A stretch of 64,000 bases of DNA from assembly GCA_001910725.1 (NCBI GenBank), contig MJGA01000027.1:1-64000 (forward strand). Direction: 5' to 3'. Shown piece by piece: positions 11,320 to 34,306 of this stretch; positions within the stretch are counted from its first letter, which is position 1; every line of letters begins with the position of its first letter. This DNA is from Phanerodontia chrysosporium. Taxonomy: Eukaryota; Basidiomycota; Agaricomycetes; Polyporales; Phanerochaetaceae. The position numbers were made by a program, and so were the translations under genes. The notes below the pieces were generated by a model. The model did not search any database, had not been told where the DNA came from, and was given only the letters and a program-made list of their open reading frames with translations.

Positions 11320-12663
11320 ATGGGCGCCACTTGGCGCACGATTCTCATCTCCCACCCTGAAATCTGGGAGATGCCGATTTGGAAAACAATCACAGGTGTC
11401 GAACGCCCGCTTTGGGACGACAATCCTTCGCCCGATGTTTTGCCCCTCACTCCAACACAGCGGAAGCTCGTAAAACGCTTCATTGCAGGCGTTTCAAAGG
11501 TGTCCGGAAAAAAGCGTGAAGCTTACTGCCTCGGGTCGCAGGGTGGCGCAGACGCGAAGGAAGCCAGCGGTTTTATCAAGGCATGGTATAAGGGAATCAG
11601 CGAGCGTCTGCAATGGCAGGTAACCCAAACGGCGTCAGAGGTCTTCCACGAGCTCGAGATGAACATGGAGGGGTGCATGAGGCGCAGGGAATCCATGGAT
11701 GTCGCTTTTGCAGTAAGCATTCAAAAACTTACACGTTATGTTACTGGTGCTTATCCGTGCTGTTGGTGCTATTATCTCTCCAGGCGAGCAAGCCCGCCCA
11801 GATGGTTCACCGGCATGGCACGGAGTTATGCAGCAGGCTGCTCGATCCCGACCTTGATCCGTTCCGTGGTAGTGGTGACATTCTCAATTGGCTCACGAAC
11901 CTCTACGTTGTTGTCCTCAGCAAGGAGAAATCGGCGATGAAGCGGAGAGTTACCAGGATCAAGAAGCTCGAGAAGGTCGTCGAGGACGCAAGGCACAGTA
12001 CGTTCTCTGGCATTCAAACAGGTCTATGCTATTCTGATTCTGGTTGCGCGTTTAGAGCTCGAGAAGGAGGCCCGGACTTTAACCCCGGCAATGCTACACA
12101 AGGAAATTCGCACCATCAGCAAGCACGCTCCAGATATCGTTCAATTTTACGACATTGTCCCGAGTCAGGAGAACATCGTCATCGTGAGGGAGCTGAAAGA
12201 GTACCTCGAAGAACTGCGGTCTGCTCTGGAGACGGAGGAAGGCGTTAGTACGTTGAGAGCTCGGATTGTAACATTGTCTTCTAAGGCTAAAGCGTATTAG
12301 AACTCAACAAAGACCTCGCCGTGCAACTCTTTCAGCTCACGGACAACGAGCTGAAGACATCCATCGAGATTGCCATTGCCTCTGCCCTCGAGGGGATCGA
12401 GTATGAGCCCCCGCAGGAGAACATATTGGGTAACGCGGCCAACATCGACGTTGCATGGGATATTACCTCGGAACAGGTTACGAGCAGCATGGTCCCTTCG
12501 GAGATGTGGGCGAACCTTGGTTTTCCGTCCGGCAAACTTCCGACCCTCGTCGACCACATCGATCTGTATGGCGAGTTCAGCGAGACGAACTCGAAGGACT
12601 GGCCAGAGGACCGTAAAAGTCCTGCCGCCCTGAAGTACCACCAGATCGTTGGGCTCTACCACC
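11320..12663 (+). pseudogene. SNF2-like helicase paralogue B, 5' part
   Basis: Exons 11320-11712, 11784-11997, 12056-12247 and the first part of exon 4 (12301-12663). Exon borders and phases match paralogue A one for one, and the protein is clearly homologous (MGATWRTILISHPE; RPLWDDNPSPD; LKYHQIVGLYH). In exon 4 the reading is broken by the LTR of retroelement 1, which begins at 12664 within the His-Leu codon pair just before the helicase core. The last five bases, CCACC (12659-12663), are the target-site duplication and reappear at 28466. Translation into the LTR would add only a few residues before a stop, so no helicase motif is left on this side. Before insertion the gene had no visible defect. 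Confidence 0.85.
12659..12663. repeat. Target-site duplication (left) of element 1
   Basis: CCACC directly before the left LTR; the same five bases follow the right LTR at 28466-28470. Five-bp duplications are typical of Ty3/gypsy integrases. Confidence 0.9.
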
Positions 12664-13357
12664 TGTCACGGATGTGACGGCACAGCCCTATTTTTCGCCG
12701 ATTTTCAGCTATTTTCCTCGATTAATCCAACGGGCGAGCAGCCCTCGCGCCGTCTGGAGTCCTAGCCGCCCACACTCAGCGCCTGGCCATTCAGCGCCAG
12801 CGCCCTGATGGCGCATCACCCAAAGACGCCAGCGCATCCTGCTGCGCGCTCAGACACTGCCCGGATCACCGGTCTGCCTTGCAACCAGTTCCCCGGATCG
12901 CCGAGGAGGCACTGTCATCCCTGATGACTCCCCTCGCCGAGACACGCCGAGCTGATCAGCCTGATGACACAGCCTCGGCCCGACGCAGCCTCGGACACTG
13001 CCAGCTGATACAGCCTCGTGACATAGCCCCCGCACAGCCTCGCCACGCAGCCCGCGTCGCAGCCTCGCTGGCTATGCCAAGCACTGCCCATCAGCTTAGG
13101 TAATCGTACAGCCTGCCCTAGAGTACTGTAGTATATAAGGGTAGCTCCCCTCGCTCCTGTCCGTCATCTCGACCTCTTGGTCAATACGGACAGGTAAGCC
13201 CGTTGTTTGTACAGTAGATACTATTGCTAATACCCCTTGGTCAATACGGACAGCTGCACAAGTTTGTTCGTCGCTGCGTGATTCGCTCCGCCGCACCTTG
13301 TCGTCGACCTCCCCATCTGCCCTCCCTCGTGCAGCGTTGAGCCTTTGCTCCGCGACA
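12664..13357 (+). repeat. Left (5') LTR of element 1
   Basis: Starts TGTCACGG and ends CCGCGACA. It contains a TATA box (13132-13138), a candidate transcript start about 34 nt later, an 18-bp direct repeat CTTGGTCAATACGGACAG at 13176-13193 and 13236-13253, and a strong splice-donor match (CAG|GTAAG) at 13194. Compared with the right LTR it has 14 substitutions and no indel by eye; 10 of the 14 are CG versus TG/CA. Confidence 0.93.
13132..13175 (+). promoter_or_regulatory. Element 1 promoter and self-primer
   Basis: TATATAA at 13132-13138. Thirty-four bases downstream, ATCTCGACCT (13166-13175) is the exact reverse complement of AGGTCGAGAT at 13360-13369, just inside the LTR. If transcription starts at or next to 13166, the RNA 5' end can fold onto the primer-binding site, as in the Tf1/sushi group. 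The start site is inferred from the spacing. Confidence 0.75.
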
Positions 13358-13359: not shown

Positions 13360-13369
13360 AGGTCGAGAT
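13360..13369 (+). promoter_or_regulatory. Self-priming primer-binding site, element 1
   Basis: AGGTCGAGAT, two bases after the LTR end, pairs perfectly with the predicted RNA 5' end (13166-13175). The usual initiator-Met tRNA complement is not present at this place. Confidence 0.75.
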
Positions 13370-13452
13370 CTCTTGGGTGCCCTAGGCAATTCCTTCCCTA
13401 CCGCTCCCCCAAAACACCGTTTAAAAAAGTTTATCCCCTCCGTTTAAAGCGA

Positions 13453-13513
13453 GTACGTCGTAGTCGAGCAGTCTGCTCACTCCGTGCACGTTGCTAAGGT
13501 CCTTACTTCACAG
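13453..13513 (+). other. Candidate 61-nt intron splitting the ORF0 start codon
   Basis: Donor GTACGT follows ..AAGCGA; acceptor TTCACAG precedes TGCCGAAAG. Removing it joins A (13452) to TG (13514-13515) and makes ATG in frame with ORF0. The length is normal for fungal introns. Another donor in the LTR (CAG|GTAAG, 13194) would give GTG instead. This is a prediction without transcript evidence. Confidence 0.5.
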
Positions 13514-14202
13514 TGCCGAAAGACGTCCGGCTCAAGGACCACATCCCCCAGTGCATCTTCGACCGCCTCCAACGTCGTCGCGAGGCCGGTAACCCCGTCA
13601 AGTGGACGGACCGCAAAGTTAAGGCGGTCGTCAAGTACGTCTCCACGCTCCCCCAGCCTCTGCCCTCTGTCCCCTCCATCAACTGGACTGCCGTCCGCGA
13701 AGCTCGTGAGGCCGAACAGCGCGTAGGCAACCGCATCCGCGAGCAGCGCCAACGCGAGGCGCAAGAAGCCCAGGCCGCCGTAGCCGCCTCCTCCTCCAAG
13801 CTCAGTTTGGCAGAGCGCCTCAGCGCCGCCCCGACGTACGAGCCCATCGCCCGCAAGCCCGTCGGCATCGACGTCCCCAAGTACTCCCCCACCGACCTCG
13901 TCGGCATCTTCACGTCCAAGCTCGACGCAACCATCAAGCGTCTCAAGGCCGTCGAGGAAGTCGACTTATTCCACCTCGTCAACAGCGATCGTGCACGCGG
14001 GGTCTGCCAGCTGTTCGAACGTCTTCAGCAGATCCGCAACGAGCTCAGCCGCCTCGCCCCCACGACCACGTTTAAGGAGTGGCACCAGTACGAGCTAGGA
14101 CTTGCTCAGATCGGTGACATTTCGTTTATCAGTTTAAGGCGCAACTTCTGCCGCATCGTGGGAGAGTTAGACGTTGTGTACCAGGCTGGATATTTTGATT
14201 AA
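13514..14202 (+). CDS. ORF0 of element 1 (start codon made by splicing?)
   Basis: An open frame of 229 codons lies between LTR and gag. It has no Met codon anywhere, and an in-frame stop at 13495-13497 leaves GTG (13513) as the only near-cognate start in unspliced RNA. The protein begins PKDVRLKDHIPQ, has a Gln/Arg/Ala coiled-coil-like middle, and ends with a block containing LFERLQQIRNELSRL, FKEWHQYEL and DISFISLRRNF. The same pattern (LFkeR..IR..L, EW....L, SF..L...F, EL) ends ORF0 of element 2, and both end in Asp just before the stop. That makes real coding likely. I know no name for this domain. It could be an N-terminal Gag-like or accessory protein. The next ATG after its stop is the gag start, 425 nt on. 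Confidence 0.6.
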
Positions 14203-14627
14203 ATAATACATCTTCCGTCGCTCTGGATTTCGACTGTTCGAACTGTCCGCACCTCTTTGGGCGAACCACAGAAAACGGAGTCACTGGTGCCGCTGATCTC
14301 CACGTCGAGGAGAGCAACGGGTCTCGAGAAGTCAGAGAGTGCAGTCAGCAGCCCTGCCCTCATCGAGAGACTGCCCCTCCGCTACTCCCGGTTCCGCCTA
14401 GCGACCGAGAAACACAGTTCGAGCGCCCTCGTTTCGCGCAACGGCTAGAATTCGCCCGCGCTTCTGCCACCACTCCGAATACTCCCGACCGCAGTCCCCC
14501 GGACAGCAGCCACCACTCGTCTCCCGAGACATCGCTCGGCTCTGCCCTCTCCGACCACGAACCCGCTCCTTCCCCGTTTAACCTCTCTCGCGCTCACTCA
14601 GGGGCAAACACTCCCCGTCCCCCCAAT

Positions 14628-15875
14628 ATGTCGAGCACTCCCGGTGGAGCGCCGCCCGGCCCGACTCCTCCTGACCCCATCTCCACTGCCCTCCTGCAAA
14701 TGGCCCAGGCAATGACGCAGCTCACAAATACGGTTAACACTCTGGCCCAGACTATCGGTGCCAATCGGACAACGGTCAACGCTACGGTCAACGCCAACAA
14801 GGAACTGCCCTTCGTCGAGAAGCCCGTCCCATTCAAGGGTAAAGGTTCTGACACGGCCCGTCTCTTCCGCGCCGCCTACCGCATCTACGCCGATGGACAA
14901 CCGGAGAAGTTCGGCAAGCGCGATGTCAACGGCAACCTCGAACGCGACCCCAACACCGGACAGATCATGGTAGACGGCCAGAAATGGATCGTTGGCGCCC
15001 TCTCCTTCATGCAGGACGAAGCCGCCGAATGGGCACGGCAGTACATCGAGCAAGCGGCAGACGGCACTCAGTTGTTCGGAGGTTCTCGTGCCCAATTCTG
15101 GGAGGCTTTCAAGAACTGGTTCGAGCCCGTCGACGAGAAGGCCGAGGCCCTCAGCAAGCTACAGGCATGCACGCAAGGCAATCGTCGGTTCGCGGAGTTC
15201 TTTGCAGAGTTCCAAGCCCTCGCCGGCCGCACGAAGCTCACCCCGGAAGACCTGGCAGCCCGGCTACAGACGAAGTTTAATAAGGACTACCTCGAGCGGA
15301 TCTCGTACATGGTCAACCCCGCTACCGGCAAAGGCCCCGAGACGTACGACGAGCTCAAGAACGCGGGTTTTGCCGTCGACCGGTCGAAGGACAAGCTCTC
15401 GCAAGACCTCCTGGCACAGCAAGGCAAGACGTCCTCGACTCCGGCTAGCTCGTCGGCGCGCGCCTTCCGCGACCCGAACGCGATGGACATCGACGCCGCG
15501 AACATAGACGAGCTGTTTAAAGGTCTCACCGGCACGGATCTCAAGCGCCAGTTCGACGCCGTCATGAAGGATCGCTGCAAGGTCTGCAGCTCAAAGTCCC
15601 ACAAGTCCACGGACCCCGTTCACCGCGACTCGGTCTGCAACCACTGTGGCAGGAAGGGTCACTGGTCTCGCGTCTGCCGCGCTCGCCTCGAGGGCAAGCC
15701 GAGAACTGCCCCCGCTACCGCCGCCGTCCGCGCCTCGTCTTCGGAAACCTCGCAGGACTCCTCGTCTCCGGCCTCCTCGTCTTCCGGCAGCTCGTCTGAC
15801 AACCAGAGCGCCGTGATCGCCGCCCTCCGTGATCAGCTGGCTCTGATACAGAAACAGCTCGGGAGTTTTGCTTAA
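14628..15875 (+). CDS. Gag of element 1
   Basis: 415 aa. The first 40 residues are Pro/Thr-rich, followed by a helical retrotransposon capsid region (FKGKGSDTARLFRAAYRIY; AQFWEAFKNWFEP) and a CCHC zinc knuckle CNHCGRKGHWSRVC at about residues 337-350, preceded by CKVCSSKSHK. It ends in a Ser-rich tail. The start at 14628 is the first ATG of any frame downstream of the LTR TATA box. The frame is open upstream to 14199 but without a Met. Gag forms the particle and the knuck binds RNA. Pol lies in the -1 frame and overlaps from 15833. Confidence 0.85.
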   Translation: MSSTPGGAPPGPTPPDPISTALLQMAQAMTQLTNTVNTLAQTIGANRTTVNATVNANKELPFVEKPVPFKGKGSDTARLFRAAYRIYADGQPEKFGKRDVNGNLERDPNTGQIMVDGQKWIVGALSFMQDEAAEWARQYIEQAADGTQLFGGSRAQFWEAFKNWFEPVDEKAEALSKLQACTQGNRRFAEFFAEFQALAGRTKLTPEDLAARLQTKFNKDYLERISYMVNPATGKGPETYDELKNAGFAVDRSKDKLSQDLLAQQGKTSSTPASSSARAFRDPNAMDIDAANIDELFKGLTGTDLKRQFDAVMKDRCKVCSSKSHKSTDPVHRDSVCNHCGRKGHWSRVCRARLEGKPRTAPATAAVRASSSETSQDSSSPASSSSGSSSDNQSAVIAALRDQLALIQKQLGSFA

Positions 15876-18800
15876 GGGGCCGGAGTGACGCCACATCGTC
15901 GGTCCCCGATTCGTCAAGCCCGGATTCAACTCCGGCGCCTTCGTTAGAACCACAGGACATTTCGGATACCATCCGCTCATGTACAATATCAGTGCTAGAT
16001 CCCTTCTCAAATCACTATCGTGTACCTGTAAAGCTCACCGGACTCAATAAAACTATTCGCACGCCCGCAATGATTGACTCCGGTGCGACTTCGCTATTCA
16101 TTCACGAGGATTTCTGTAAGCGACACAAAATCCTCACGGTACCGCTCAAGAAGGAGATCACACTATACAACATCGATGGAACCAAGAATGAAGCAGGGTC
16201 TATCACGCATCGTGCCAGACTCCAGCTCACTGTGGGTTCTTACACGTTTAAGGAGGAGTTTCTTGTCACAAACATCGGTCCGGAGGACGTCATCCTCGGA
16301 CTTCCGTGGCTCAAGAAATGGAATCCGAACATCAACTGGGAAACGGGAGATGTCCAGTTTCAGCTCCGCGGCGGAGTTGAGGACACCCCGGTTTTCGGTA
16401 TCCACCAGATTGACGCCAACCGCTCCGAGCACCGTGAATGGCTTCGAGCAGGCATTGTTGAGGATGCCAAGGACGAAGTCTGGATCCTCGCCGGCTACAC
16501 TTACTCGCAAGCGATCGCTGTCGAAGCCAACCGCGAGAAGTATGCCAAGACGTTTGAAGAGCTGGTCCCCAAGGAGTACCACCGACACAAGAAGGTGTTC
16601 TCCGAAGAAGAATCGCACCGCCTTCCGAAGCATCAGCCCTGGGACCACACGATAGATCTCGTCCCGGACGCCCCGGCGTCGATCAAATCGAAGGTCTACC
16701 CCATGTCCCCGATCGAGAATGAAGAACTACAGCGGTTCATCGACGACGCACTCGCCAAAGGATACATTGTCCCCAGCAAGTCTCCGATCGCTTCCCCTGT
16801 CTTCTTCATCAAGAAAAAGGACGGCAAGCTCCGGTTTATCCAAGACTATCGCAAGCTCAACGACATCACTGTGAAGAATCGGTACCCCCTCCCGCTCGCC
16901 TCCGACATCATCGGGAAGCTCCAGGGCGCTAAGATCTTCACCAAGTTCGACGTCCGTTGGGGCTACAACAACGTCCGGATTAAGGAAGGTGATGAGTGGA
17001 AAGCTGCCTTCGTCACCAACCGCGGTCTCTTCGAGCCCAGAGTCATGTACTTCGGTTTGTGCAACAGCCCTGCCACGTTCCAGGCCCTCATGAACCACAT
17101 CTTCGCCGACCTCATTGTCGAAAGCAAGGTCGCAGTCTACCTCGACGACATCCTCATCTGGTCGAACGATCTCGCTTCGCATCGGAAGATTGTTCACGAG
17201 GTCCTGGCACGCCTCGCCAAATACGATCTGTACCTTCGGCCCGAGAAGTGTGAGTTCGAGCGCTCAGAGATCGAATATCTTGGGCTCCTCATCAGCGAAG
17301 GGCAAGTCGGCATGGACCCCGGCAAGGTTAAGGCTGTAGCTGAGTGGCCGACCCGAAGAACCTCAAAGACGTACGAGGCTTCGTCGGGTTTGCCAACTTC
17401 TACCGCCGCTTCATCAAAGACTTCTCAAAGATCTGCCGCCCGCTGCACGATCTGACGAAGAAGGATACTCCGTTTAATTGGGGTCCCGCACAGGCAGAAG
17501 CCTTCGAGACGCTCAAGCGCGCTTTCACGACTCAGCCCGTGCTAGCCATGTGGAGCATTGATCGGCCAACTCACGTCGAGACCGATGCTTCTGGCTACGC
17601 CACCGGAGGAGTCATAGCCCAACGCAACCCTGACGATGGTCTCTGGCATCCAATCGCGTATCGCTCGCAGACCATGAGCCCCGCCGAGCGGAATTACGAG
17701 ATCTGGGACCGTGAGATGCTTGCAATCATCGAAGCTCTCAAGGACTGGCGCCAGTTCCTCGAAGGTCTCCCGGAGCCTTTTGAGATCTGGACCGATCACC
17801 AGAATCTCCAGTACTGGAAGACTGCGCAGAATCTCATGCGGCGACAAGCCCGGTGGGCCTCCTACCTCGCCGAGTACGACTTCCGCATCATCCATCGCCC
17901 CGGCAAGATGCATCTCCTCGCCGATCCGCTCTCCCGACCCTCCTCGCTGCATGTCTCTGATGAAGAGAACAATCGCTCACAGGTAGTATTGAAGCCAGAG
18001 CTGTTTAAGATAGCCGCCACGGCAGCTTTCGCGAACCCCTCCCCTCTCGAGAAGCGCATTCGCGACTGCTCCGAAAAGGAAAAGGAAGTCGCAGACGCTC
18101 TGCAGATTCTCCGGACCAAGGGGCCCCGCAAGCTGCACAACGGTGTCCTCGAATGGGAAGAGGATAACGGCCTTCTGTACTACCATGGGAAAGTCTATGT
18201 CCCGAACAGCGCCGCGCTGCACAACGACGTCATCAAGTCTTGCCACGACGCGCTGACCGCCGGACACCCTGGGAAATACACCACCCTCGAATTGGTCTCT
18301 CGGTACTATTGGTGGCCGCGCATCTCCGCCGACGTTAGCCGCTACGTGCTCGGCTGCAATCAATGTCAACGATACAAGTCCGCCCTGCACCCAAAGGCCA
18401 CTCTACAGCCCCACGATGTCCCTTCAGGGCCCTGGGAACATGTCGGCGTGGATCTCATCACACAGCTCCCGCGCGACGCCAAGACCAAGAAGGACTCGAT
18501 CGCGGTCTACGTGGACCACTATTCGGATCAGTGCCACCTTGTCCCCGTCGACTCGACGATCACCGCTGCCGGCATGGGCGACGTCCACTACACGGACATC
18601 TTCCGCCTCCATGGCCTCCCGTGCAAGATCTTCTCCGATCGCGGACCCCAGTTTGCTGCACAGTACATGCGAGCGCTATACAAGCACCTCGGCATCGCTA
18701 CTGGTCTCACCACGGCGTATCACCCAGAAGGCAACGGCAAGGTCGAGCGCAAGAACCAGGAAGTCGAGAAATTCCTGCGTCTCTTCGTCTCCCAGCGCCA

Positions 18801-19369
18801 AGATGACTGGGTTGATTGGCTCCCAATGGCTGAATTCACCCTGAATTCGCACGTGTCTAGTGCTACCGAGCGCACACCTTTCGAGATTGTCTACGGCTAT
18901 ACACCGGACTTCACGATCCCGGCCGGCAAACACACCAAGGTTCCTGCCCTCGATGAGCGTCTAGACCGCATGGCTCACGTTCGCAAAGAGGCCGAAGCCG
19001 CCCTGCGCCTTACCAAGGCTCGCATGAAAGAAGAATACGAGGCCGCGAAGAAACGCGCCCACTCCTTCAAGGTTGGCGACCAGGTTTGGCTCAGCACAAA
19101 GGACCTCAGCATCGATCAGCCCTCGCCCAAGCTCGGCCCTCGCCAGCTGGGTCCGTTTAAGGTTCTGGAAAAGATCGGCGATCTGGACTATCGGCTCGAG
19201 CTCCCGAGCTGGCTGAAAATTCATCCAGTTTTCCATGTCAACCGCCTCAGCCCGTGGCATGATCAGGGCGTCGAGAAGCCCCTGCCTCCCAAACCTGTCA
19301 AGGTTGCCGGCGAAGAGGAATACGTCGTCGAGAAGGTCCTCGACAGCCGCATATACCGCCGCCAACTCC
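15833..19369 (+). pseudogene. Pol of element 1, 5' part (frameshift, truncated)
   Basis: The -1 frame relative to gag is open from 15833; the gag stop is at 15873. A T-run in suitable phase (G AGT TTT, 15863-15869) is a possible slip site. Domains: aspartic protease (MIDSGATSLFIH), reverse transcriptase with VYLDDILIWS, RNase H (ETDASGYATGGVI), integrase with HHCC finger (H..GHPGKY..C..C), a DDE core, a GPF-type module (LGPRQLGPFKVLEKI) and the start of a chromodomain (EEEYVVEKVLDSR). Near 17350 one base is missing (AEWPT then PKNLKDVRGFVG), so reading must shift frame between reverse transcriptase and RNase H. At 19365-19369 (ACTCC) element 2 has inserted and cut the chromodomain. Confidence 0.9.
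19365..19369. repeat. Target-site duplication (left) of element 2
   Basis: ACTCC before 19370, repeated at 27472-27476 after the other LTR. The duplicated bases are element 1 chromodomain codons. Confidence 0.88.
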
Positions 19370-19970
19370 TATCACAAAAATGCGCTGCCCTAGCGCCTAT
19401 ACACTAAACCAACCAGCAATACTCACTGGCAAAGGTTTTACTTGGACTACAAAGGGTGTAGCCAGGCTTGAAGACGAGGTATAGAGGCTAGAGAGGTGAG
19501 ATGCGATGAGATTGAAGCTGGGGAGGCACCCCCAGCCCTCAGGGTTTATATACATGTGCACCAGGTCCCCAGGGACCGGTGTTCAGGGTCCTAGCTATCT
19601 AATACCTACTACGCTATTGGCTAGTGCCCTACAGGCATTCCTACATTCTCCTACACATTCCTAAATGTTCCTACGATGTCCCAGAAACCTCCAGAACGTT
19701 CCAGCACTGTCCGGACCTGTCCAGAGACCTCCAGGGCTTTCTAGTCCATTCCGGAGTGTCTCGGCGCTTCCAGACCCTTGCCTGCTTCTAGACCTTCGAC
19801 CATGTGACCCTGGGATACCGCACGTGTGCGCATCACGTGACCGCCGTATCACGTGACCAGCCCCGAGCCTAGGGCTGTCACTCCAGCGCTTCTGCATGTC
19901 ACAGTTCGGAGTAATCGCTTCTGTCACCTGCTGCCCCTAACCCTAAGGGTTGAGACGAAAAACTGTGACA
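19370..19970 (-). repeat. 3' LTR of element 2
   Basis: 601 bp, same sequence by eye as 26871-27471. The end next to the polypurine tract carries CCCTAACCCTAAGGGTT, a telomere-repeat-like stretch. Confidence 0.93.
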
Positions 19971-19983
19971 TTACCCCCAATTC
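19971..19983 (-). promoter_or_regulatory. Polypurine tract of element 2
   Basis: Reads GAATTGGGGGTAA in element orientation and directly abuts TGTCACAG of the 3' LTR. Element 1 has the similar AGGAGGGGGGTAA at 27759-27771. Such tracts prime plus-strand synthesis. Confidence 0.8.
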
Positions 19984-20005
19984 TAGCTGAACCTCCTGGT
20001 GAAGC

Positions 20006-23000
20006 CTAAATACCAGTGGAGCCAAAACCATCGCTGCTGCGAATGGTTGAGTCGAGGCGAGAAACCGGAGTTGGTTCGGCGTAGGAGATTCTTTCGAGCA
20101 CGAGTTGAGCGACACGATCACCCTTGTGGAAAGTAAAGGTGTCGGGCGAGTTGTTGATGAGTAGAATTTTGAGCTCCCCTCGATAATCTCGGTCAATAAC
20201 GCCTGCTCCTATGTCGATGCCTCTGAGGCTGAGGCCACTCCGTGGTGCGACTCGAGCGTAGGTACCTGGTGGAGTACACATTCGAAGGCCCGTTGACGCT
20301 AGCTTGCGATCATGGGGCTTGAGCGTAAGGTCTTCCGTGATGAAAAGATCCAACCCTGCACTTTCTGGCGAGCCACGTGAGGGGAGTTTTGCGTCCTTGT
20401 TCATGAGCTCGACCTCGAACTGGTCGTCTGCTCCCCAAGATTGGAGTAGCGCGAGTTCGCGCACGAAAAACTCATCCTCCTCGTCGTGGTGGCGTTGCAG
20501 AAGGGAAATTGCCTTCGGCGCATCTGGGTATTTCCTGTGGAATTGTTTGACCTTTGCCATAGCGTGCTTGAGATTGGGCAAGTATTCCCATGTGTCGCTA
20601 TGCTCATCGTAGCCTCTCCACCGTACTCGGTACATAACACGGCCTTTAGAGTCTGGCTGTGCATCTACGATCTGCTCGACCTCGTACTCCTCGTCATCAC
20701 CCACACGAATGGGTGGTAGGGGTTTGCGCGTGCGATTGGCAACCTCATCCTCGACGTGCTTCGTGAGCTTGCTTGCGTGGAAGACCGGGTGAATCTTCAC
20801 ATGGGCTGGTAACTTCAGCTTGAAGGTGACCGGTCCCAGCTGCTCTACGATCTCGTAAGGGCCTACTCGCTTTGGTGCCAGTTTCTTGGAGGGAACCCGA
20901 AGGTTCAGATCCTTTGCGTCAAGCCAAACACGGTCTCCGACCTTGAACAAGGGTTCTGATTTACCCTGGTCGTAGTACCACTTCATTCGCTCTGCAGCCA
21001 GCATGAGCGCGGCTTTCGCCTGATCTTGGGCCTCCTGTCTAAGCTTCGTCCAGTCGTCCAGTTCTGACAACCTTGTAACACGGTCCTGCTCTGGGAACAT
21101 GCGTGGATGACGGCCATATTCGACGAAGAATGGCGAGTTCTTGGTGCTTTCATGCGCCTGGTTGTTGTACGCAAACTCGGCAGAGGGCAAAAGGTACGCC
21201 CAGTCGTCCTGCCTGAAGCTTGTGTAGCAGCGCAGATATTGCTCCAATGACTGATTAACTCGCTCAGTCTGACCGTCTGCCTGAGGGTGAAACGCTGTAG
21301 TCATTGCTGACTTGATCCCCAGGAGTCTGCACCATTCCTGGAAGAGTTTCGCGGCGAACTGCGTTCCTCTATCCGAAATGATCTGTCTGGGTAGGCCGTG
21401 CAAAGGCCAAACACGCTCATAGAGCAAATTTCCCAGATCCTTGGCTGAAAACTCCTTGGTGATGGGGAGGAAATGTGCTCGCTTGGTTAAGCGGCAAACG
21501 ACTACGAAGATAGCGTTGTAACCGTCCGACTCAGGCAAGTCCGTGATCATATCGCATGAGATTATCTCCCAGGGTTCCGACGGAACCTCGTTCGGTTGTA
21601 GCAGGCCAGCAGGCTTCTGGTTGACGTTTTTATGCGACTGGCAGACTTCGCAGCCTGCGACGTACTTCTTGACGTAAACCGACATTCCTGGCCACCAGTA
21701 GTTGCGCGACAGCAACTCCAACGTCTTCCATCGTCCAGGGTGTCCAGCCCCAGGGAAGTCGTGGTGTAACTTGAGTAGATCCGCCCTAATCTTGTCGTCC
21801 TTGGGCACATACACCTTGCCTCGGTGCAGTAGTAGCCCGTCCTCGAGGTGCCATTCCGCTAAGTCCTTCCCGAACTCTCTTGGTCCTTTCAACATCAGGT
21901 CTTTGTACGACTTGGTGACTTCGTCGTCCAGCAGGGCTTTTCTGATCCTTTCTAGCAGTTTGCTATCGTCCACTATCGATGAATGGGTTGGTTGCATGGC
22001 TCGAATCGCGAAATATTCTGGCTTCAAAAGGACTTTTTCACGATTGTCGCAATCCACCCCCAATTCATGATCTGGCCTCCTGGACATTGGATCAGCCCGC
22101 TTCATCGTCTTTCCAGGCTTGTGCTCCAACTTGAAGTGGAAACGTGTGAGGAAAAGACTCCAACGTGCTTGGCGTCGCGTCAAGTCTTGCGCCTTGCGGA
22201 AATAGGTCAAATTCTGGTGATCTGACCATATGTCGAATGGTAGAGGGTGTCCCTCCAAGTGGTGGCGCCATTCCTTCAGTGCGCGGATGATGGCCAGCAT
22301 CTCCTTGTCGTATATCTCGTAGTTGCGCTCGTGTACGCCTAGCGCCTTGGAGTAAAACGCGACAGGGTGCCAGAGGCCATCCTCACCCAGTTGCTCAAGT
22401 ACAGCCCCCGTAGCAAAGTCTGACGAATCGCATTCGAGCCTAAAAGGGTGCTCGTCGTCCGGAATCTTGAGAATAGGCGCAGTGGTGAACGCTCTCTTGA
22501 GTGTATCGAAGGCATCCTGCTGCTCAGGCCCCCATTCCCACTCTTTGCCTTTGCGGGTAAGCTCTGACAATGGGCGAACAATCTTGCCAAAGTCTCGAAT
22601 AAACCGTCGGTAGAAGTTAGCAAAACCCAGGAAAGCCTGGACATCTTTGACCCTTTTGGGTATGGGCCAAGATAAAACGCCATCTACCTTCGATGGATCC
22701 ATCTGAACCGACCCCTTGCTGATGATCATTCCGAGGTATTCAATGCTATCCGTCTCGAAGAAGCATTTTTCTGGCTTAGCGAACAGGTCATTGTCGCGTA
22801 GCCGCTGCAATACCTCGCGAACTAATCGCCGATGGTGGTCCAAGTCATTCGTGAAGATGAGAATGTCGTCTAGGTAGACCATGACATGCCCTTCTCGAAT
22901 CAGATCGTCGAGAATATGGTTCATCATGCGCTGAAAGGTTGCTGGTGCATTGCTGAGGCCGAAGAACATCACTGTAGGTTCGTATAAACCGAAAGGTGTG

Positions 23001-24163
23001 ATGAAGGCCAGCTTCCACTCGTCTCCTTCCTTGATTCTGACGTTGTTATACCCCCATCTAAGGTCAATCTTGGTGTATATACTAGCCTTAGATAGTCGAT
23101 CTATAAGGTCTGAGATCTTGGGTATAGGGAAGCGGTCTTTCTTAACGACTTCGTTCAGCTTTCTGTAGTCCTGCACCAAGCGCAATGAACCGTCCTTCTT
23201 CTTCACGAAAAAGACTGGTGCTGCCAGCGGGGATTTACTTGGTCTGATGTATCCCTTGGCGAGATTCTCCTGAATCCACTCGTCCAGAGAATTCCTCTCT
23301 TCTGGCGACAGCGAGTAATTACGAGCTGGTCGAGGTAGGGTAGCTCCGTCGATAAACTCGACAGCGTGGTCGTAAGGCTTTCGTACGGGTAACCGTTCGC
23401 TTGCACGCTTCGAAAACACGTCCCCATAGTCTTGATACTGTGCAGGGACAAGCTGCTCCCAGCCCTCGATTCCCTCCAGCGAACGAATACTGCACATCGC
23501 TGCGATCTTCCGGCAAGTTAATGCCAAAACGCGGCCATCTGGGGTGGAAGGGTCGACCCACTGGAGCCAAGGCTCCTCTTCTTCCTCCTCGAAGTCCTCA
23601 TCCATAGGTTCTTCGAGCTCTGCTTGCGCTACTTGAGCCTTGTGGCTGGTAAAGCGACAAGAATCTGGGCATCTGGAGTACTTCCACTCGCCCTTATCCC
23701 AATCTATCTCGGGATTATGCTTCTTCAAGTAGCTAAAGCCGAGGAACATGTCCTTTCCACCCAGATCTGTAATGAGGCATGCTTGTCTGGAGACATGGTC
23801 CCCTACGGCTACGTCGAGCCAAGCGTACTCCTCAATACTGCCACACTTGTTCCTGGAGCCATCTGCGTTGTAAACGCGTATCTCCCTGGCCAGCTGGTTC
23901 GTCTTCAGCTTATGCTTCTTGACGAAGCGATGGCTAATGAACACAGCATAGGCCCCTGAATCAACCAGCGCGGTAGTCTGCACTCTGATTTCCTTACCCT
24001 GACTCAAAGTTACTGGAACGATAAAGCTCGATTTAGAGGGTAAACTAGAGACTTTTCTCGATTCCAAAACTGATCTAATACATTCTACTGAGTCGGGAGG
24101 GTAAAGGAAATCTAAAAACGGACCAGATGTCGCAGACTCTACATCGGTCCCTGCAGAAAATCC
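20006..24163 (-). CDS. Pol of element 2 with chromodomain and dUTPase
   Basis: The -1 frame relative to gag opens exactly at 24163 and runs to 20006; counted from the first Met at 24067 it is 1353 aa. Domains: protease LVDSGAYAVFISH (near residue 35), reverse transcriptase VYLDDILIFTND (near 395), RNase H (LECDSSDFATGAV), integrase HHCC finger (HHDFPGAGHPGRW..C..C, from about 765), DDE core (ISDRGTQFAAK; DGQTERVNQSLEQ), GPY module (APKRVGPYEIVEQLG), and chromodomain (about 1122-1180, YRVRWRGYDEHSDTWEYL). It ends in a full dUTPase (about 1220-1353, nt 20009-20410) with all five motifs: SAGLDLF, APRSGLS, GAGVIDRDYRGELK, GDRVAQLVLE and RSSDGFGSTG. The chromodomain should steer integration to marked chromatin; dUTPase would limit uracil in the cDNA. 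Intact. Confidence 0.93.
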   Translation of the reverse strand, partial: GFSAGTDVESATSGPFLDFLYPPDSVECIRSVLESRKVSSLPSKSSFIVPVTLSQGKEIRVQTTALVDSGAYAVFISHRFVKKHKLKTNQLAREIRVYNADGSRNKCGSIEEYAWLDVAVGDHVSRQACLITDLGGKDMFLGFSYLKKHNPEIDWDKGEWKYSRCPDSCRFTSHKAQVAQAELEEPMDEDFEEEEEEPWLQWVDPSTPDGRVLALTCRKIAAMCSIRSLEGIEGWEQLVPAQYQDYGDVFSKRASERLPVRKPYDHAVEFIDGATLPRPARNYSLSPEERNSLDEWIQENLAKGYIRPSKSPLAAPVFFVKKKDGSLRLVQDYRKLNEVVKKDRFPIPKISDLIDRLSKASIYTKIDLRWGYNNVRIKEGDEWKLAFITPFGLYEPTVMFFGLSNAPATFQRMMNHILDDLIREGHVMVYLDDILIFTNDLDHHRRLVREVLQRLRDNDLFAKPEKCFFETDSIEYLGMIISKGSVQMDPSKVDGVLSWPIPKRVKDVQAFLGFANFYRRFIRDFGKIVRPLSELTRKGKEWEWGPEQQDAFDTLKRAFTTAPILKIPDDEHPFRLECDSSDFATGAVLEQLGEDGLWHPVAFYSKALGVHERNYEIYDKEMLAIIRALKEWRHHLEGHPLPFDIWSDHQNLTYFRKAQDLTRRQARWSLFLTRFHFKLEHKPGKTMKRADPMSRRPDHELGVDCDNREKVLLKPEYFAIRAMQPTHSSIVDDSKLLERIRKALLDDEVTKSYKDLMLKGPREFGKDLAEWHLEDGLLLHRGKVYVPKDDKIRADLLKLHHDFPGAGHPGRWKTLELLSRNYWWPGMSVYVKKYVAGCEVCQSHKNVNQKPAGLLQPNEVPSEPWEIISCDMITDLPESDGYNAIFVVVCRLTKRAHFLPITKEFSAKDLGNLLYERVWPLHGLPRQIISDRGTQFAAKLFQEWCRLLGIKSAMTTAFHPQADGQTERVNQSLEQYLRCYTSFRQDDWAYLLPSAEFAYNNQAHESTKNSPFFVEYGRHPRMFPEQDRVTRLSELDDWTKLRQEAQDQAKAALMLAAERMKWYYDQGKSEPLFKVGDRVWLDAKDLNLRVPSKKLAPKRVGPYEIVEQLGPVTFKLKLPAHVKIHPVFHASKLTKHVEDEVANRTRKPLPPIRVGDDEEYEVEQIVDAQPDSKGRVMYRVRWRGYDEHSDTWEYLPNLKHAMAKVKQFHRKYPDAPKAISLLQRHHDEEDEFFVRELALLQSWGADDQFEVELMNKDAKLPSRGSPESAGLDLFITEDLTLKPHDRKLASTGLRMCTPPGTYARVAPRSGLSLRGIDIGAGVIDRDYRGELKILLINNSPDTFTFHKGDRVAQLVLERISYAEPTPVSRLDSTIRSSDGFGSTGI

Positions 24164-25719
24164 TCATCGTCTGAGAATACCACGCGGTTAATCTTCTGCG
24201 CCTTCTCCTTCGAAGACGACTTCTTCTTTTGCTTGGTCTTGGGGGTATCTTCTTCTTCTGAGCTATCTGAGCTCGATTCCTCATCAGAGGCTACCTCCTG
24301 GAATCTCTCCGAGTCGCTGGCGTACACCTCGCGCACGCTGTTCTTCGTGTGGCGAGAGCCCTTATCCTTCTCCTTTCCCTTTGGAGGCGAAGCCTTTGAC
24401 GAACTGGCCACCGGTGCATTGGTGGTTTTACTCGACGACGTCGAAGAACCTGAGTTGTTCTTCTTCGATGGACACTCCTTGGCGATGTGGCCTTTGCCTC
24501 CACACTGAGCGCAGCAGCCTTTCTTCTTCGCCTCCTCGAACGACATGGCAACCTTCTGAACTTTGGCTGTCTTGCCTTTACCCTGGGCTGAGCCCTTCTT
24601 CAAGGCGTCGACATCCATAGCGTCAGGGTCTTTCGACGACTGAGGCTGTCCAGAGAGTACGGTGCCCGTCAAGAGACGTTGATCCTGCAGAATCTCCTGA
24701 ACATCCTTCAACCAACCATCCCAGGTCGTAGCCCACTGAGCACGACCACGGGCTGCCAGTACATCGGCGGCGGCACGAGGGGTATGGGCATAGGCTTTGA
24801 CCAACAGTTCCTCGTTGGAGAAGCCAGTTTGGCGAGCCAGCGAACGGAAACGAGCAGCAAACTCATTGAAAGTCTTCTCGTTCGTTCCTTTCTTGCTGAC
24901 AAGCTGCTCAAACTCTGCCCTTGCCCTGTCCTTCTTGTCGGTCTGTTGGAATCCTTTCTGGAGTTCGTTCACAAAGTTGGTCCAAGTACCAAGGGGCTTT
25001 GAGTCTGCCACCTTGTCGAAGTACTCTTGCATGACCTTCTTTGCTGAACCTCGCAGGTAAGTCATCGCCGTCTCTATCTTCTTTTCGTCGTCCATTACGC
25101 CACGGTGGCGCAACCAGAGTGCCATCGACTCGAGCCAGTCATCCAGCTTACTAGCCTTATCACCATTAAAGGTGTCAGGCTCCTTCATGGTAGGGAACAA
25201 AGACTGAGACAACCCAACGTTGCCTCCACTAGTGCCTTGCTGAACCAACACTTTCAAGCTCTCGTTCTCCTGCTTCAGCACCTGCATAGCGTTCTGCAAA
25301 ACGCGATTTTGGTTCTGAGCCTCTGCTATCTGCGCAGACAAGTGCTGTCTAGTCTGCTCAAGAGTGTCTATCTGCTCCTGAAGTGTCTTGGCCTCAGTTT
25401 TGCGTTTGCGAAGGGCTTCCTTCAAGCGAAGGACTTCTGAACCCATTTCCGACCTTACTTGAGCTATCTCAGCCTTTACCCAGTTACCCAGGCTGTCAAC
25501 GAGGGCCTTGAAGTCGCCAGGAGTCAGTCCTTCCTGAGCGGCTTGTACCCATGACTGGCTGTACTCTTCGTAAGAGGTCGAAAGCGGCGCAGCGGCCAAA
25601 ACTGGGGTAGGGCCTCCCTCAGCCATAGAGCCGAGTTCTAACGCTCCCCAAGGGTCCATACCACTTGAACTCGCAGCAGAACGCAAACCAAAGTCAACAG
25701 GATTTGAATTGAGCGACAT
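24139..25719 (-). CDS. Gag of element 2
   Basis: 526 aa from the ATG at 25717-25719, which is the first ATG after the ORF0 stop 29 nt upstream and the first in the entire predicted RNA. A coiled-coil region (about residues 90-175) is followed by a retrotransposon capsid domain (DTFNGDKASKLDDWLESM; FAARFRSLARQTGF), a CCHC knuckle (CAQCGGKGHIAKEC, about 400-415) and a Ser/Lys/Asp-rich tail. The last codons overlap pol in the -1 frame. GGATTTT (24157-24163) lies in the X-XXY-YYZ phase and resembles the GGAUUUA slip site known from a mammalian betaretrovirus. Where the -1 frame opens coincides with this heptamer. Confidence 0.88.
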   Translation of the reverse strand: MSLNSNPVDFGLRSAASSSGMDPWGALELGSMAEGGPTPVLAAAPLSTSYEEYSQSWVQAAQEGLTPGDFKALVDSLGNWVKAEIAQVRSEMGSEVLRLKEALRKRKTEAKTLQEQIDTLEQTRQHLSAQIAEAQNQNRVLQNAMQVLKQENESLKVLVQQGTSGGNVGLSQSLFPTMKEPDTFNGDKASKLDDWLESMALWLRHRGVMDDEKKIETAMTYLRGSAKKVMQEYFDKVADSKPLGTWTNFVNELQKGFQQTDKKDRARAEFEQLVSKKGTNEKTFNEFAARFRSLARQTGFSNEELLVKAYAHTPRAAADVLAARGRAQWATTWDGWLKDVQEILQDQRLLTGTVLSGQPQSSKDPDAMDVDALKKGSAQGKGKTAKVQKVAMSFEEAKKKGCCAQCGGKGHIAKECPSKKNNSGSSTSSSKTTNAPVASSSKASPPKGKEKDKGSRHTKNSVREVYASDSERFQEVASDEESSSDSSEEEDTPKTKQKKKSSSKEKAQKINRVVFSDDEDFLQGPM

Positions 25720-25748
25720 CTTGATTCAAAAACGCGCAGATACAAAAA

Positions 25749-26479: not shown

Positions 26480-26857
26480 CTAGTAAACACGGGTCAGCCT
26501 GTATACACAAGCCAGAAAACTTCTCCACACAGGCAAAGCGCAAGGCTTTCCTGCCAGCCAACCCTCAACGAAGAGAAAGGGGTATTACTGCGGGTTTCCA
26601 CGCCACGCAGCTAAAACTGGTTGGACAGGGTATTACACCCTTAGTCCAGCACTACAACAGGGGTTACTCGTCCGCAGGCAAAGCCCTCTGAGGTGGGTTA
26701 CACCACGTTCCCCTGTCTGTACCTAAAAAGGTACTATAGTGCCCACTTACGCCTGTGGATCGGCAGAAAACTGAACAAAGCGCAAAAGCACTTGTTCAAA
26801 CAAGCCCCCAGAACCCAAAGCAATAACCTAGGCCACCAAAGGTGGAGTAGGTTGGCT

Positions 26858-26868
26858 AGCTTCAATCT
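26858..26868 (-). promoter_or_regulatory. Self-priming primer-binding site, element 2
   Basis: Reads AGATTGAAGCT in element orientation, two bases inside the 5' LTR, and is an exact 11-nt complement of AGCTTCAATCT at 27010-27020, the predicted RNA 5' end. Confidence 0.8.
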
Positions 26869-26870
26869 TC

Positions 26871-27471
26871 TATCACAAAAATGCGCTGCCCTAGCGCCTA
26901 TACACTAAACCAACCAGCAATACTCACTGGCAAAGGTTTTACTTGGACTACAAAGGGTGTAGCCAGGCTTGAAGACGAGGTATAGAGGCTAGAGAGGTGA
27001 GATGCGATGAGATTGAAGCTGGGGAGGCACCCCCAGCCCTCAGGGTTTATATACATGTGCACCAGGTCCCCAGGGACCGGTGTTCAGGGTCCTAGCTATC
27101 TAATACCTACTACGCTATTGGCTAGTGCCCTACAGGCATTCCTACATTCTCCTACACATTCCTAAATGTTCCTACGATGTCCCAGAAACCTCCAGAACGT
27201 TCCAGCACTGTCCGGACCTGTCCAGAGACCTCCAGGGCTTTCTAGTCCATTCCGGAGTGTCTCGGCGCTTCCAGACCCTTGCCTGCTTCTAGACCTTCGA
27301 CCATGTGACCCTGGGATACCGCACGTGTGCGCATCACGTGACCGCCGTATCACGTGACCAGCCCCGAGCCTAGGGCTGTCACTCCAGCGCTTCTGCATGT
27401 CACAGTTCGGAGTAATCGCTTCTGTCACCTGCTGCCCCTAACCCTAAGGGTTGAGACGAAAAACTGTGACA
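26871..27471 (-). repeat. 5' LTR of element 2
   Basis: 601 bp. In element orientation TATATAAA is at 27053-27046 and the 11-nt self-primer at 27020-27010, about 33 nt later. A strong donor (CCA|GTGAGT) is at 26927. Identical by eye to the 3' LTR. Confidence 0.93.
27010..27053 (-). promoter_or_regulatory. Element 2 promoter and self-primer
   Basis: TATA box at 27046-27053, predicted transcript start at 27020 with RNA 5' end AGCTTCAATCT. No ATG occurs on the sense strand from the TATA box down to the gag ATG at 25719. Confidence 0.75.
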
Positions 27472-27771: not shown

Positions 27772-28465
27772 TGTCATGGATGTGACGGCGCAGCCCTATT
27801 TTTCGCCGATTTTCAGCTATTTTCCTCGATTAATCCAACGGGCGAGCAGCCCTCGCGCCGTCTGGAGTCCTAGCCGCCCACACTCAGCGCCTGGCCATTC
27901 AGCGCCAGCGCCATGATGGCGCATCACCCAAAGATGCCAGCGCATCCTGCTGCGCGCTCAGACACTGCCCGGATCACCGGTCTGCCTTGCAACCGGTTCC
28001 CCGGATCGCCGAGGAGGCACTGTCATCCCTGATGACTCCCCTCGCCGAGACACGCCGAGCTGATCAGCCTGATGACACAGCCTCGGCCCGACGCAGCCTC
28101 GGACACTGCCAGCTGATACAGCCTCGTGACATAGCCCCCGCACAGCCTCGCCGCACAGTCCGCGTCGCAGCCTCGCTGGCTATGCCAAGCACTGCCCATC
28201 AGCTTAGGTAATCGTACAGCCTGCCCTAGAGTACTGTAGTATATAAGGGTAGCTCCCCTTGCTCCTGTCCGTCATCTCGACCTCTTGGTCAATACGGACA
28301 GGTAAGCCCATTGTTTGTACAGTAGATACTATTGCTAATACACCTTGGTCAATACGGACAGCTGCACAAGTTTGTTCATCGCTGCGTGATTCGCTCCGCT
28401 GCACCTTGTCGTCGACCTCCCCATTTGCCCTCCCTCGTGCAGCGTTGAGCCTTTGCTCCGCGACA
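27772..28465 (+). repeat. Right (3') LTR of element 1
   Basis: 694 bp with intact TATA (28240), predicted start (28274) and donor (28302). It points into the downstream half of helicase B. No ATG lies between its predicted start and the exon remainder. Confidence 0.93.
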
Positions 28466-28641
28466 CCACCTCGCTGAACAGCTTTTCAAGCACGATGCGA
28501 TGCTGCTTCTCGATGAGGTTGGCGTCGGAAAGACCCTTCAGGTGATAGCCCTTCTCGCATACCGGATTGCAGCGTTGGAGAACATGAAAGTGAATCATCG
28601 GTATCCCGGAAAATTTGGTGAGTGGATGCAGTCACTACAAT

Positions 28642-34162: not shown

Positions 34163-34281
34163 GAATGCACTGTGCCAGTGAACGCTCTTCTGCCAAGGGG
34201 CTAGGCACCTAGCACCAGAATTGGATGCTTGGCTGCAGGTAGCAGTGCTTGAGGTGCATCCTAGTGCATCCTAGAGGCCAT

Positions 34282-34300: not shown

Positions 34301-34306
34301 CCCCCT

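What the first reader, a model, noticed from the sequence alone, without database searches (positions are those of the whole stretch)
13452..13515. Start codon of ORF0 may be created by splicing (A|TG)
ORF0 has no ATG. In element 1 a 61-nt GT-AG intron (GTACGT..TTCACAG) ends exactly before TGCCGAAAG and is preceded by A, so splicing yields ATG CCG AAA in frame. In element 2 the acceptor TTTACTAG sits at the same place before TGCCTAAAG, and the LTR donor CCA|GTGAGT also ends in A. Unspliced RNA would give Gag as its first product and spliced RNA would give ORF0: an RNA-level switch like that of retroviral accessory genes, built into the start codon.
Basis: partly seen in the sequence, partly recalled or inferred. 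Interest (0 to 1): 0.9.

Follow-up and report, generated by a model that had tools for sequence, protein, structure and literature searches.

The report
Start codon made by RNA splicing
Two related families of jumping genes in a probable fungal genome carry an extra protein gene with no start signal in the DNA; sequence evidence suggests that cutting a piece out of the RNA creates the signal, so that one RNA could switch between making this protein and the particle protein Gag.

Summary
In element 1, A13452|GTACGT…CACAG13513|TGCC frames a 61-nt GT-AG intron whose removal creates ATG in frame with ATG-less ORF0. Element 2 has GCCA26928|GTGAGT and TACTAG26480|TGCC. Copies support it: donor and acceptor are kept in 48 of 48 element-1 copies examined, though the 13 intron columns before CAG all vary (45 aligned). 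A 16-mer with CAG|TGCC occurs 115 times in the genome, its plain-ATG form never. ORF0 is under protein-level selection (dN/dS 0.09; other frames 2.5-2.8), yet it and 12 database relatives have no internal Met. From inferred cap to gag ATG neither element has any ATG, implying that ribosomes scan unspliced RNA through ORF0 to Gag. The exception is a 60-nt intron-like stretch in element 1's LTR, with ATG in 21 of 46 copies. Both elements look self-priming. Splice-made start codons are known (gypsy env, AT|G), as are AUG-free upstream ORFs (rice tungro virus); combining them for an ORF upstream of gag looks like a new variant. Not shown: any RNA. No genomic copy carries the spliced ORF0 junction. 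GUG initiation is the main rival.

The parts
12664..13357 (+). Element 1, 5' LTR (TGTCACGG...CCGCGACA); target-site duplication CCACC at 12659-12663 and 28466-28470
   Evidence: 98% identical to the 3' LTR 27772-28465; equal 5-bp flanks
13166..13175 (+). Inferred start of R / self-primer ATCTCGACCT, downstream of TATATAAG at 13132
   Evidence: exact reverse complement of 13360-13369; present in 48 of 48 copies; TATA position. The transcription start is inferred
13176..13193 (+). LTR exon 1 after the primer: CTTGGTCAATACGGACAG, first copy of an 18-nt direct repeat
   Evidence: two exact repeat copies in 46 of 48 element copies
13194..13253 (+). LTR intron-like stretch, 60 nt: GTAAGC...GCTAATA..., ending in the second copy of the 18-nt repeat (13236-13253)
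   Evidence: donor GTAAGC in 45 of 46, CTRAY in 41 of 46; ATG inside in 21 of 46; 341 genomic sites with it (up to 1 mismatch), 9 exact sites without it
13360..13369 (+). Putative self-priming primer-binding site AGGTCGAGAT, 2 nt after the LTR
   Evidence: complementary to 13166-13175; invariant in 45 of 45 aligned
13453..13513 (+). ORF0 intron (GTACGT...CACAG); splicing would join A13452 to T13514 to make ATG
13514..14202 (+). ORF0 of element 1 (MPKDVRLK... once spliced), ATG-free in all frames; stop TAA 14200-14202
   Evidence: dN/dS 0.087 over 47 copies, other frames 2.5 and 2.8; no ATG
14223..14627 (+). AUG-less N-terminal extension of Gag, in the gag frame; CTG at 14223-14225 (GCNCTGGA) is the proposed start
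   Evidence: dN/dS of the whole spacer 0.36 in the gag frame, 1.4 and 1.1 in the other frames; GCNCTGGA in 48 of 48 copies, in the gag frame in 43 of 48
14628..15875 (+). Element 1 gag from its first ATG (MSSTPGG...)
   Evidence: PF03732, E 1.2e-07 for the stop-to-stop ORF 14199-15875; ATG position
15833..19407 (+). Element 1 pol region (PR, RT, RNase H, integrase), in two frames in this copy (15833-17455 and 17344-19407); the last ORF runs into the nested element 2
   Evidence: Pfam
27772..28465 (+). Element 1, 3' LTR, also carrying the LTR intron-like stretch (28302-28361)
26871..27471 (-). Element 2, 5' LTR (TGTCACAG...TTGTGATA); target-site duplication ACTCC (plus strand) at 27472-27476 and 19365-19369
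27010..27020 (-). Element 2 inferred start of R / self-primer AGCTTCAATCT
   Evidence: 11-nt exact complement to 26858-26868; the transcription start is inferred
26858..26868 (-). Element 2 putative self-priming primer-binding site AGATTGAAGCT
26480..26927 (-). Element 2 proposed ORF0 intron (GTGAGT in the LTR ... GTGTTTACTAG), 448 nt, which would remove the primer-binding site; joins A26928 to T26479
25749..26479 (-). ORF0 of element 2 (MPKAARNR... once spliced), no ATG in any frame
   Evidence: C-terminal part related to element 1 ORF0 by profile comparison
24139..25719 (-). Element 2 gag from its first ATG (MSLNSNP...)
   Evidence: PF03732, E 4.3e-08 for the stop-to-stop ORF 24139-25725
20006..24163 (-). 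Element 2 pol: PR-RT-RNase H-integrase-chromodomain-dUTPase
   Evidence: Pfam
19370..19970 (-). Element 2, 3' LTR

Best explanation
Two related Ty3/Gypsy-type LTR retrotransposon families carry, upstream of gag, a conserved protein (ORF0) whose start codon is not in the DNA. A GT-AG intron ends exactly before TGCC and its 5' exon ends in A, so splicing creates AUG in frame (context GCG-AUG in element 1, GCC-AUG in element 2). In RNA that keeps this intron the scanning ribosome meets no AUG from cap to gag, passes ORF0 and starts Gag. In RNA that loses it, ORF0 is the first AUG ORF. Retention or removal of one intron thus chooses the product. Element 1 has a second intron inside the LTR, with a better branch-point match, that is probably removed before scanning, because ATGs are common only there. 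Shown: the sequence anatomy, its conservation, selection on ORF0 as a protein, the absence of ATG, the relatedness of the two ORF0s. Inferred: splicing, scanning, the role as a switch, and what ORF0 does.
For: A|GT...AG|TGCC kept in 48 of 48 copies with intron length 59-61. In 45 aligned copies the donor hexamer and CAG are invariant while the 13 columns before CAG all vary; 9 of 9 splice-site columns invariant against 37 of 61 overall, hypergeometric P 0.007 (sites named beforehand by the finding, copies not independent). Pairwise distances of different blocks are weakly correlated (Spearman -0.10 to 0.47), so shared ancestry alone explains this less easily. Plain-ATG junction 0 sites against 115. 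ORF0 dN/dS 0.087. No ATG from inferred cap to gag in either element; 2 ATG in 61,938 nt of leader+ORF0+spacer from 44 unique copies, against ATG in 13 of 32 unique 60-nt LTR introns. No internal Met in 12 database relatives, 2,907 residues. The two ORF0 families are related (hhalign probability 95%, E 2.8e-08, 123 columns) and both start (A)TGCC(G/T)AAAG. The spliced AUG has G at -3 in 48 of 48 element-1 copies and in element 2.
Against: No RNA was available. No genomic copy with a spliced ORF0 junction was found (0 for element 1, 0 for element 2, up to 3 mismatches); for element 1 this is informative, because its intron lies downstream of the primer-binding site. The ORF0 intron of element 1 has no CTRAY branch motif (0 of 48), only looser YTNAY matches (48 of 48). 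Zero ATG in the ORF0 intron is uninformative (0.06 expected per unique intron). Within each ORF0 alone, synonymous shuffles give P(no ATG) 0.09 and 0.10. LTR introns, too, have fewer ATG than shuffles predict (0.41 against 0.90 per unique intron), and 17 of 21 of these ATGs are one recurrent motif, CTAATG. Element 2 has a competing GTAAGT donor at 26750, and its copies are too alike for conservation to say much. The DNA behind the 11 of 12 database relatives written with M could not be read, so a plain ATG there is not excluded.
Confidence: 0.75

Rival explanations
1. ORF0 starts at a non-AUG codon, the GUG of A-GUG-CC, on unspliced RNA; most ribosomes leak past it to Gag, as at the AUU of rice tungro bacilliform virus ORF I. 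The GT-AG frame would be coincidence.
For: An AUG-free ORF0 and leader are what leaky scanning needs (PMC5902531, passages). In element 1 the GUG has a purine at -3 in 48 of 48. No spliced genomic copies.
Against: It does not explain the invariant donor, the invariant A before it, or the invariant CAG behind 13 variable columns. The element-2 GUG has C at -3 and C at +4, a poor context.
Confidence: 0.15
2. Splicing at this acceptor is real but uses another donor (in element 1 the LTR GTAAGC at 13194, in element 2 the GTAAGT at 26750), giving an mRNA whose ORF0 start would not be AUG.
For: Both sites exist and look closer to the recalled general donor consensus than the proposed ones.
Against: Joining either to TGCC leaves G-TG or C-TG, not ATG. 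In element 1 the LTR donor has its own acceptor 60 nt downstream, and the invariant A|GTACGT would be unexplained.
Confidence: 0.06
3. ORF0 is part of a longer fusion made by readthrough or frameshifting, not a separately started protein.
For: In 21 of 48 element-1 copies the gag frame is open back to exactly the ORF0 stop.
Against: This concerns the ORF0 end, not its start. The frame between ORF0 stop and Gag differs among copies, with 22-29 nt of variable sequence before the conserved CTG where one search gave its place. Upstream, intron length is 59, 60 or 61, so no one frame continues into ORF0.
Confidence: 0.03
4. ORF0 is not translated; the open frame is chance or structural RNA.
For: No start codon in DNA; no Pfam match.
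Against: dN/dS 0.087 in frame against 2.5-2.8 in the other frames; a related protein in a family about 20% identical.
Confidence: 0.01

Closest known systems
Drosophila gypsy (errantivirus) env mRNA
   Different: There the ORF is env, expressed from an mRNA lacking gag and pro-pol (PMC4276936, passages), and the split is AT|G. Here the ORF is upstream of gag, matches no known family, and the split is A|TG. PMC2585583 also reports that the splicing was not detected in the species it tested.
Rice tungro bacilliform virus and badnavirus leaky scanning
   Same: Upstream ORFs kept free of internal AUG so that ribosomes reach the main ORF (900 nt scanned in RTBV; PMC5902531, passages read).
   Different: RTBV ORF I starts at AUU on the unspliced RNA; here splicing appears to supply a true AUG, and the ATG-free stretch is 1.3-1.5 kb.
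Tf1-type self-priming LTR retrotransposons
   Same: The first 10-11 nt of the inferred transcript are complementary to a site just after the 5' LTR.
   Different: In element 1 an intron-like stretch sits in R just after the primer. The Tf1 mechanism is recalled; PMC2864245 passages only mention self-priming in general.
Fungal chromodomain Ty3/Gypsy elements with dUTPase (Postia placenta PosPlaTy3)
   Same: dUTPase at the C-terminus of Pol in PosPlaTy3-4 (PMC2864245, passages), as in element 2.
   Different: A figure legend there names an 'add. ORF' of unknown function; the passages read do not say where it lies, and 'start codon' does not occur in that text.
ORF0 of rice Retrosat2/RIRE3/RIRE8
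   Same: An extra ORF upstream of gag-pol (PMC3485330, passages).
   Different: Plant elements with LTRs over 3 kb; that text holds 'splic' once and neither 'intron' nor 'start codon'. Sequence relatedness to the present ORF0 was not tested.
Murine leukaemia virus glyco-Gag (recalled)
   Same: CUG-started N-terminal extension of Gag; element 1 has a conserved AUG-less extension beginning near a CUG.
   Different: Analogy only; start codon use is untested here.

Membership tests
Ty3/Gypsy LTR retrotransposon | Paired LTRs with short target-site duplication | tested here: met
   CCACC and ACTCC duplications; LTRs 694 and 601 bp
Ty3/Gypsy LTR retrotransposon | gag and pol with PR-RT-RNase H-integrase order | tested here: met
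   Pfam
Chromodomain subgroup | Chromodomain after integrase | tested here: inconclusive
   Element 2: PF00385, E 1.6e-11. Element 1: not found in the pieces scanned, but this copy is interrupted at the end of pol by element 2
Tf1-type self-priming | 5' end of transcript complementary to the primer-binding site | tested here: inconclusive
   Complementarity met: 10 nt in element 1, 11 nt in element 2; that these letters are the transcript's 5' end is inferred
Tf1-type self-priming | Cleavage of the transcript end and its use as primer | not testable with these tools
   needs biochemistry
Gypsy-type spliced start codon | Start codon absent from DNA and assembled across a splice junction | tested here: inconclusive
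   DNA side met; junction RNA not observed
Gypsy-type errantivirus | The spliced ORF is env, located 3' of pol | tested here: not met
   ORF0 lies upstream of gag and has no Pfam match
RTBV-type leaky scanning | Upstream ORFs free of internal AUG | tested here: met
RTBV-type leaky scanning | Upstream ORF initiated at a non-AUG or weak AUG codon on the unspliced RNA | tested here: inconclusive
   GUG present; purine at -3 in element 1, poor context in element 2
Plant Retrosat2-type ORF0 | Sequence relatedness of ORF0 | not tested
   no Retrosat2 sequence was fetched

The most novel reading that the evidence does not exclude
Element 1 runs two introns with opposite fates. The ORF0 intron is a switch. 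The LTR intron is removed from most RNA and copied back at each reverse-transcription cycle: after self-primer removal, the minus strong-stop DNA made on spliced RNA ends in the complement of CTTGGTCAATACGGACAG plus exon 2; that exact 18-mer is also the 3' end of the intron in the unspliced 3' R, so first-strand transfer can land beside the intron and re-copy it. The repeat unit runs precisely from the end of the self-primer pairing to the 5' splice site; two exact copies are present in 46 of 48 element copies while the intron core between them differs by 34% on average. Occasional failure would give LTRs lacking exactly the intron: 9 exact sites against 341 with it, and what appears to be one element has lost it from both LTRs while keeping its ORF0 intron.
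Probability: 0.4. Interest if true: 0.82.

Novelty: new variant of a known kind. Interest (0 to 1): 0.66.

Why it matters
If true, compact fungal retrotransposons use intron retention as a switch between an accessory protein and Gag, with the switch built into the start codon, much as retrovirus-like elements of animals use splicing. Gene finders that look for ATG or for single-exon ORFs would miss such proteins; absence of Met across a whole conserved ORF is a simple search signature for more. The LTR intron with its exon mimic would answer how an element that copies itself from RNA can keep an intron in its LTR. Both points can be tested with ordinary RNA sequencing.

Tried and rejected
Search for relatives in IMG/VR by ORF0 profile: 37 pattern matches, none confirmed; by LTR-exon pattern: 0. 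Solved structures by profile: best E 0.21 and 0.055, not trusted. AlphaFold models of ORF0 are helical and of low confidence (mean pLDDT 54 and 68); Foldseek with the better one gave no match with E <= 0.001 in PDB or BFVD, so no fold is claimed. A wider protein search by profile gave 8 hits, one of them new, P0014.

I first took the gag-frame spacer of element 1 as possible readthrough or frameshift from ORF0; the link of variable length and frame argues against it and CUG initiation is now preferred. Against that: 12 of 47 spacers hold at least one stop in the gag frame, two of them four, and the CTG is out of the gag frame in 5 of 48. I considered that zero ATG in the ORF0 intron shows its retention in Gag mRNA, but only 0.06 per intron is expected, so this is dropped. 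The 20 host or unassigned ORFs gave a few host domains and no introns to calibrate splice sites against; the fungal intron consensus is recalled, not measured. I did not identify the species.

Rows dropped before counts: one search used 45 of 48 copies (L013 and L026 lack two exact repeats, L025 has a shortened ORF0); one search used 47 of 48 (L025 out). The count of ACAG ends of the LTR intron (46 of 46) holds by construction, because copies were chosen by the exact repeat that ends so. One search looked at 23 element-2 loci; L073 is deleted across the acceptor and L084 is mutated there; for L079 and L080 the junction shown, also, belongs to a neighbouring copy, the copies asked for lacking the first 25-30 codons. 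Among the 35 rows, L060 and L090 repeat the places of L053 and L058. L002-L008 repeat places of L009-L015, and L001 the window; they were not counted again in the 48.

Full report
What is there. The window lies in contig C66 of an unnamed 39-Mb genome, G000. Two LTR retrotransposons are nested. Element 1 (plus strand) has LTRs 12664-13357 and 27772-28465 with CCACC duplicated on both sides. Element 2 (minus strand, LTRs 27471-26871 and 19970-19370, duplication ACTCC) sits inside it. Both encode Ty3/Gypsy-type Gag and Pol; element 2 Pol ends with a chromodomain and a dUTPase. That the host is a fungus, probably a basidiomycete, is inference from genome size and element type.

The observation. 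At 13452-13514 the sequence reads A|GTACGT...CTTCACAG|TGCCGAAAG, a 61-nt GT-AG frame whose removal makes ATG in frame with ORF0. In element 2, GCCA26928|GTGAGT and TTTACTAG26480|TGCCTAAAG do the same over 448 nt. Neither ORF0 has a Met.

Conservation. The DNA searches scored 40 places each (a cap): element 1 at 92-96% identity beside the window itself, element 2 at 99-100%. Protein searches gave 147 and 120 match rows to the two ORF0 types, broken copies counting more than once. In 48 element-1 copies (40 of subfamily A with the window, 8 of subfamily B) A|GTACGT and AG|TGCC are present in 48, the intron being 59 nt in 3, 60 in 25 and 61 in 20. In 45 of these aligned, GTACGT and CAG never vary, but all 13 columns just before CAG do; the chance that nine positions picked at random are all invariant is 0.007. 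Distances between copies in different blocks are weakly correlated (U3-ORF0 0.01, U5-ORF0 0.14, leader-ORF0 intron 0.47), which points to frequent recombination among copies. Genome-wide, CAGTGCCRAAAGACGT occurs 115 times and CAATGCCRAAAGACGT never. Element-2 copies keep acceptor and donor in 34 of 35 rows each, but they are too alike for this to weigh much.

ORF0 is a protein. Across 47 copies dN/dS is 0.087 in frame, and 2.5 and 2.8 in the shifted frames. The ORF0s of the two elements share about 20% identity, but profile comparison relates their C-terminal parts (probability 95%, E 2.8e-08, 123 columns). No Pfam family, and no convincing solved structure or fold, was matched.

ATG avoidance. 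From just before the inferred cap to the gag ATG, element 1 has 0 ATG in 1465 nt (6.9 expected); element 2 has 0 in 1291 nt (9.0 expected); none of 1000 shuffles reached 0 in either case. Over 48 copies of element 1, four ATGs were found in leader, ORF0 and spacer outside the LTR intron (L026 two, L041 and L045 one each); in the 44 unique copies with both repeats exact, two in 61,938 nt. Twelve database relatives contain no internal Met in 2,907 residues; ten begin at the residue of the splice junction in the alignment, P0014 begins MPKD, and P0013 begins later. One (P0003) is written with V and eleven with M, which may stand for GTG or ATG. Results that weaken this: within ORF0 alone, synonymous shuffles give P(no ATG) of 0.09 and 0.10, so the effect rests on the absence of Met codons and on the leader; old, decayed element-2 copies (L081, L084, L085) do contain ATGs, as expected once selection has ended.

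The LTR intron, not in the finding. Element 1 has a 60-nt frame in the LTR, GTAAGC...CTAAT...ACGGACAG (13194-13253). Its core differs by 34% on average between copies, yet the donor is GTAAGC in 45 of 46 and CTRAY is present in 41 of 46. ATG occurs inside it in 21 of 46 copies (13 of 32 unique sequences), though hardly anywhere else in the leader. Two cautions: LTR introns still hold fewer ATG than shuffles predict (0.41 against 0.90), and 17 of the 21 ATGs are the motif CTAATG. The simplest reading is that this intron is removed before ribosomes scan, while the ORF0 intron, lacking CTRAY in 48 of 48, is removed less often. The genome holds 341 LTR sites with the intron (up to one mismatch) and 9 joined exactly without it, plus two one-mismatch sites of which one may carry an intron. 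At C2:164172 and C2:171114, which by spacing and shared U5 sequence look like the two LTRs of one element, both lack it, and the ORF0 intron there is retained. That is what a reverse-transcribed LTR-spliced, ORF0-unspliced RNA would leave; recombination between the 18-nt repeats during copying would give the same DNA.

Self-priming and the repeat. In element 1, ATCTCGACCT (13166-13175, downstream of TATATAAG at 13132) is the exact complement of AGGTCGAGAT (13360-13369), 2 nt after the LTR. In element 2, AGCTTCAATCT (27020-27010) is complementary to 26868-26858. In element 1 the 18-nt repeat begins just where the primer pairing ends and stops exactly at the 5' splice site; its second copy is the 3' end of the intron. 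From this I infer the copy-back model given as the novel case.

Gag start. Between ORF0 stop and gag ATG, element 1 has about 425 nt that are mostly open in the gag frame and under constraint (dN/dS 0.36; other frames 1.4 and 1.1; 12 of 47 copies with a stop). The stretch is ATG-free in the window copy; L026 and L045 have one ATG each. GCNCTGGA is present in 48 of 48 copies, in the gag frame in 43, after a stretch of variable length and frame. A CUG-started longer Gag is the best guess.

How it most likely works. Unspliced at ORF0: scanning without AUG to Gag. Spliced at ORF0: AUG appears and ORF0 is made. Element 2's intron would remove the primer-binding site, so its spliced RNA could not be copied, which fits 0 spliced copies. 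Element 1's would not, and 0 spliced copies means that spliced RNA is rare, not packaged, or not made. RNA is needed to decide. What ORF0 does is unknown; I think an accessory role, as with retroviral regulatory proteins, the most likely, by analogy only.

Known and new. A start codon produced by splicing is in print for gypsy env (PMC2585583, passages). AUG-free upstream ORFs with leaky scanning are in print for RTBV and badnaviruses (PMC5902531, passages). ORFs named ORF0 upstream of gag are in print for rice elements (PMC3485330, passages). My searches for a spliced or split start codon in retroelements, for an upstream ORF in fungal elements, for self-priming with an R intron and for CUG or leaky-scanning retroelements listed no paper that I recognised as describing this arrangement; most hits were seen only as listings, and the library lacks most subscription journals. 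I therefore file it as a new variant of a known kind.

Noticed in passing
window 13194-13253 and 28302-28361: A 60-nt intron-like stretch in the element-1 LTR, ending in a copy of the 18 nt that precede it; 341 genomic LTR sites with it (up to 1 mismatch), 9 exact sites without it.
   Followed up: yes
window 14223-14627: AUG-less, conserved N-terminal extension of element-1 Gag beginning near a CUG with G at -3 and +4.
   Followed up: partly
window 20006-24163 (-): Element-2 Pol carries a dUTPase domain after the chromodomain.
   Followed up: partly
window 19365-27476: Element 2 is nested in element 1; 40 scored matches to its ORF0 region at 99-100% identity in the genome indicate a recent burst.
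   Followed up: partly
window 15833-19407: Pol of this element-1 copy is split between two frames (overlap 17344-17455), so this copy looks broken.
   Followed up: no
window 34250-34860: A decayed element-1 type LTR still showing the LTR intron between diverged repeat copies.
   Followed up: partly
L084, L085, L081: Old element-2 copies look as if decayed by many C-to-T / G-to-A changes, perhaps a RIP-like process; judged by eye only.
   Followed up: no
L009-L047, L064-L071: Element-1 copies look like mosaics: pairwise distances in U3, LTR intron, U5, ORF0 and spacer are weakly correlated.
   Followed up: partly
window 26750 (-): A full GTAAGT donor-like site in the element-2 leader just after CCACAG-GC; its role is unclear.
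   Followed up: no
window 61085-61924 (-) and 41799-42524 (+): Host genes: ubiquinol-cytochrome c chaperone domain and a flavin monooxygenase domain.
   Followed up: no
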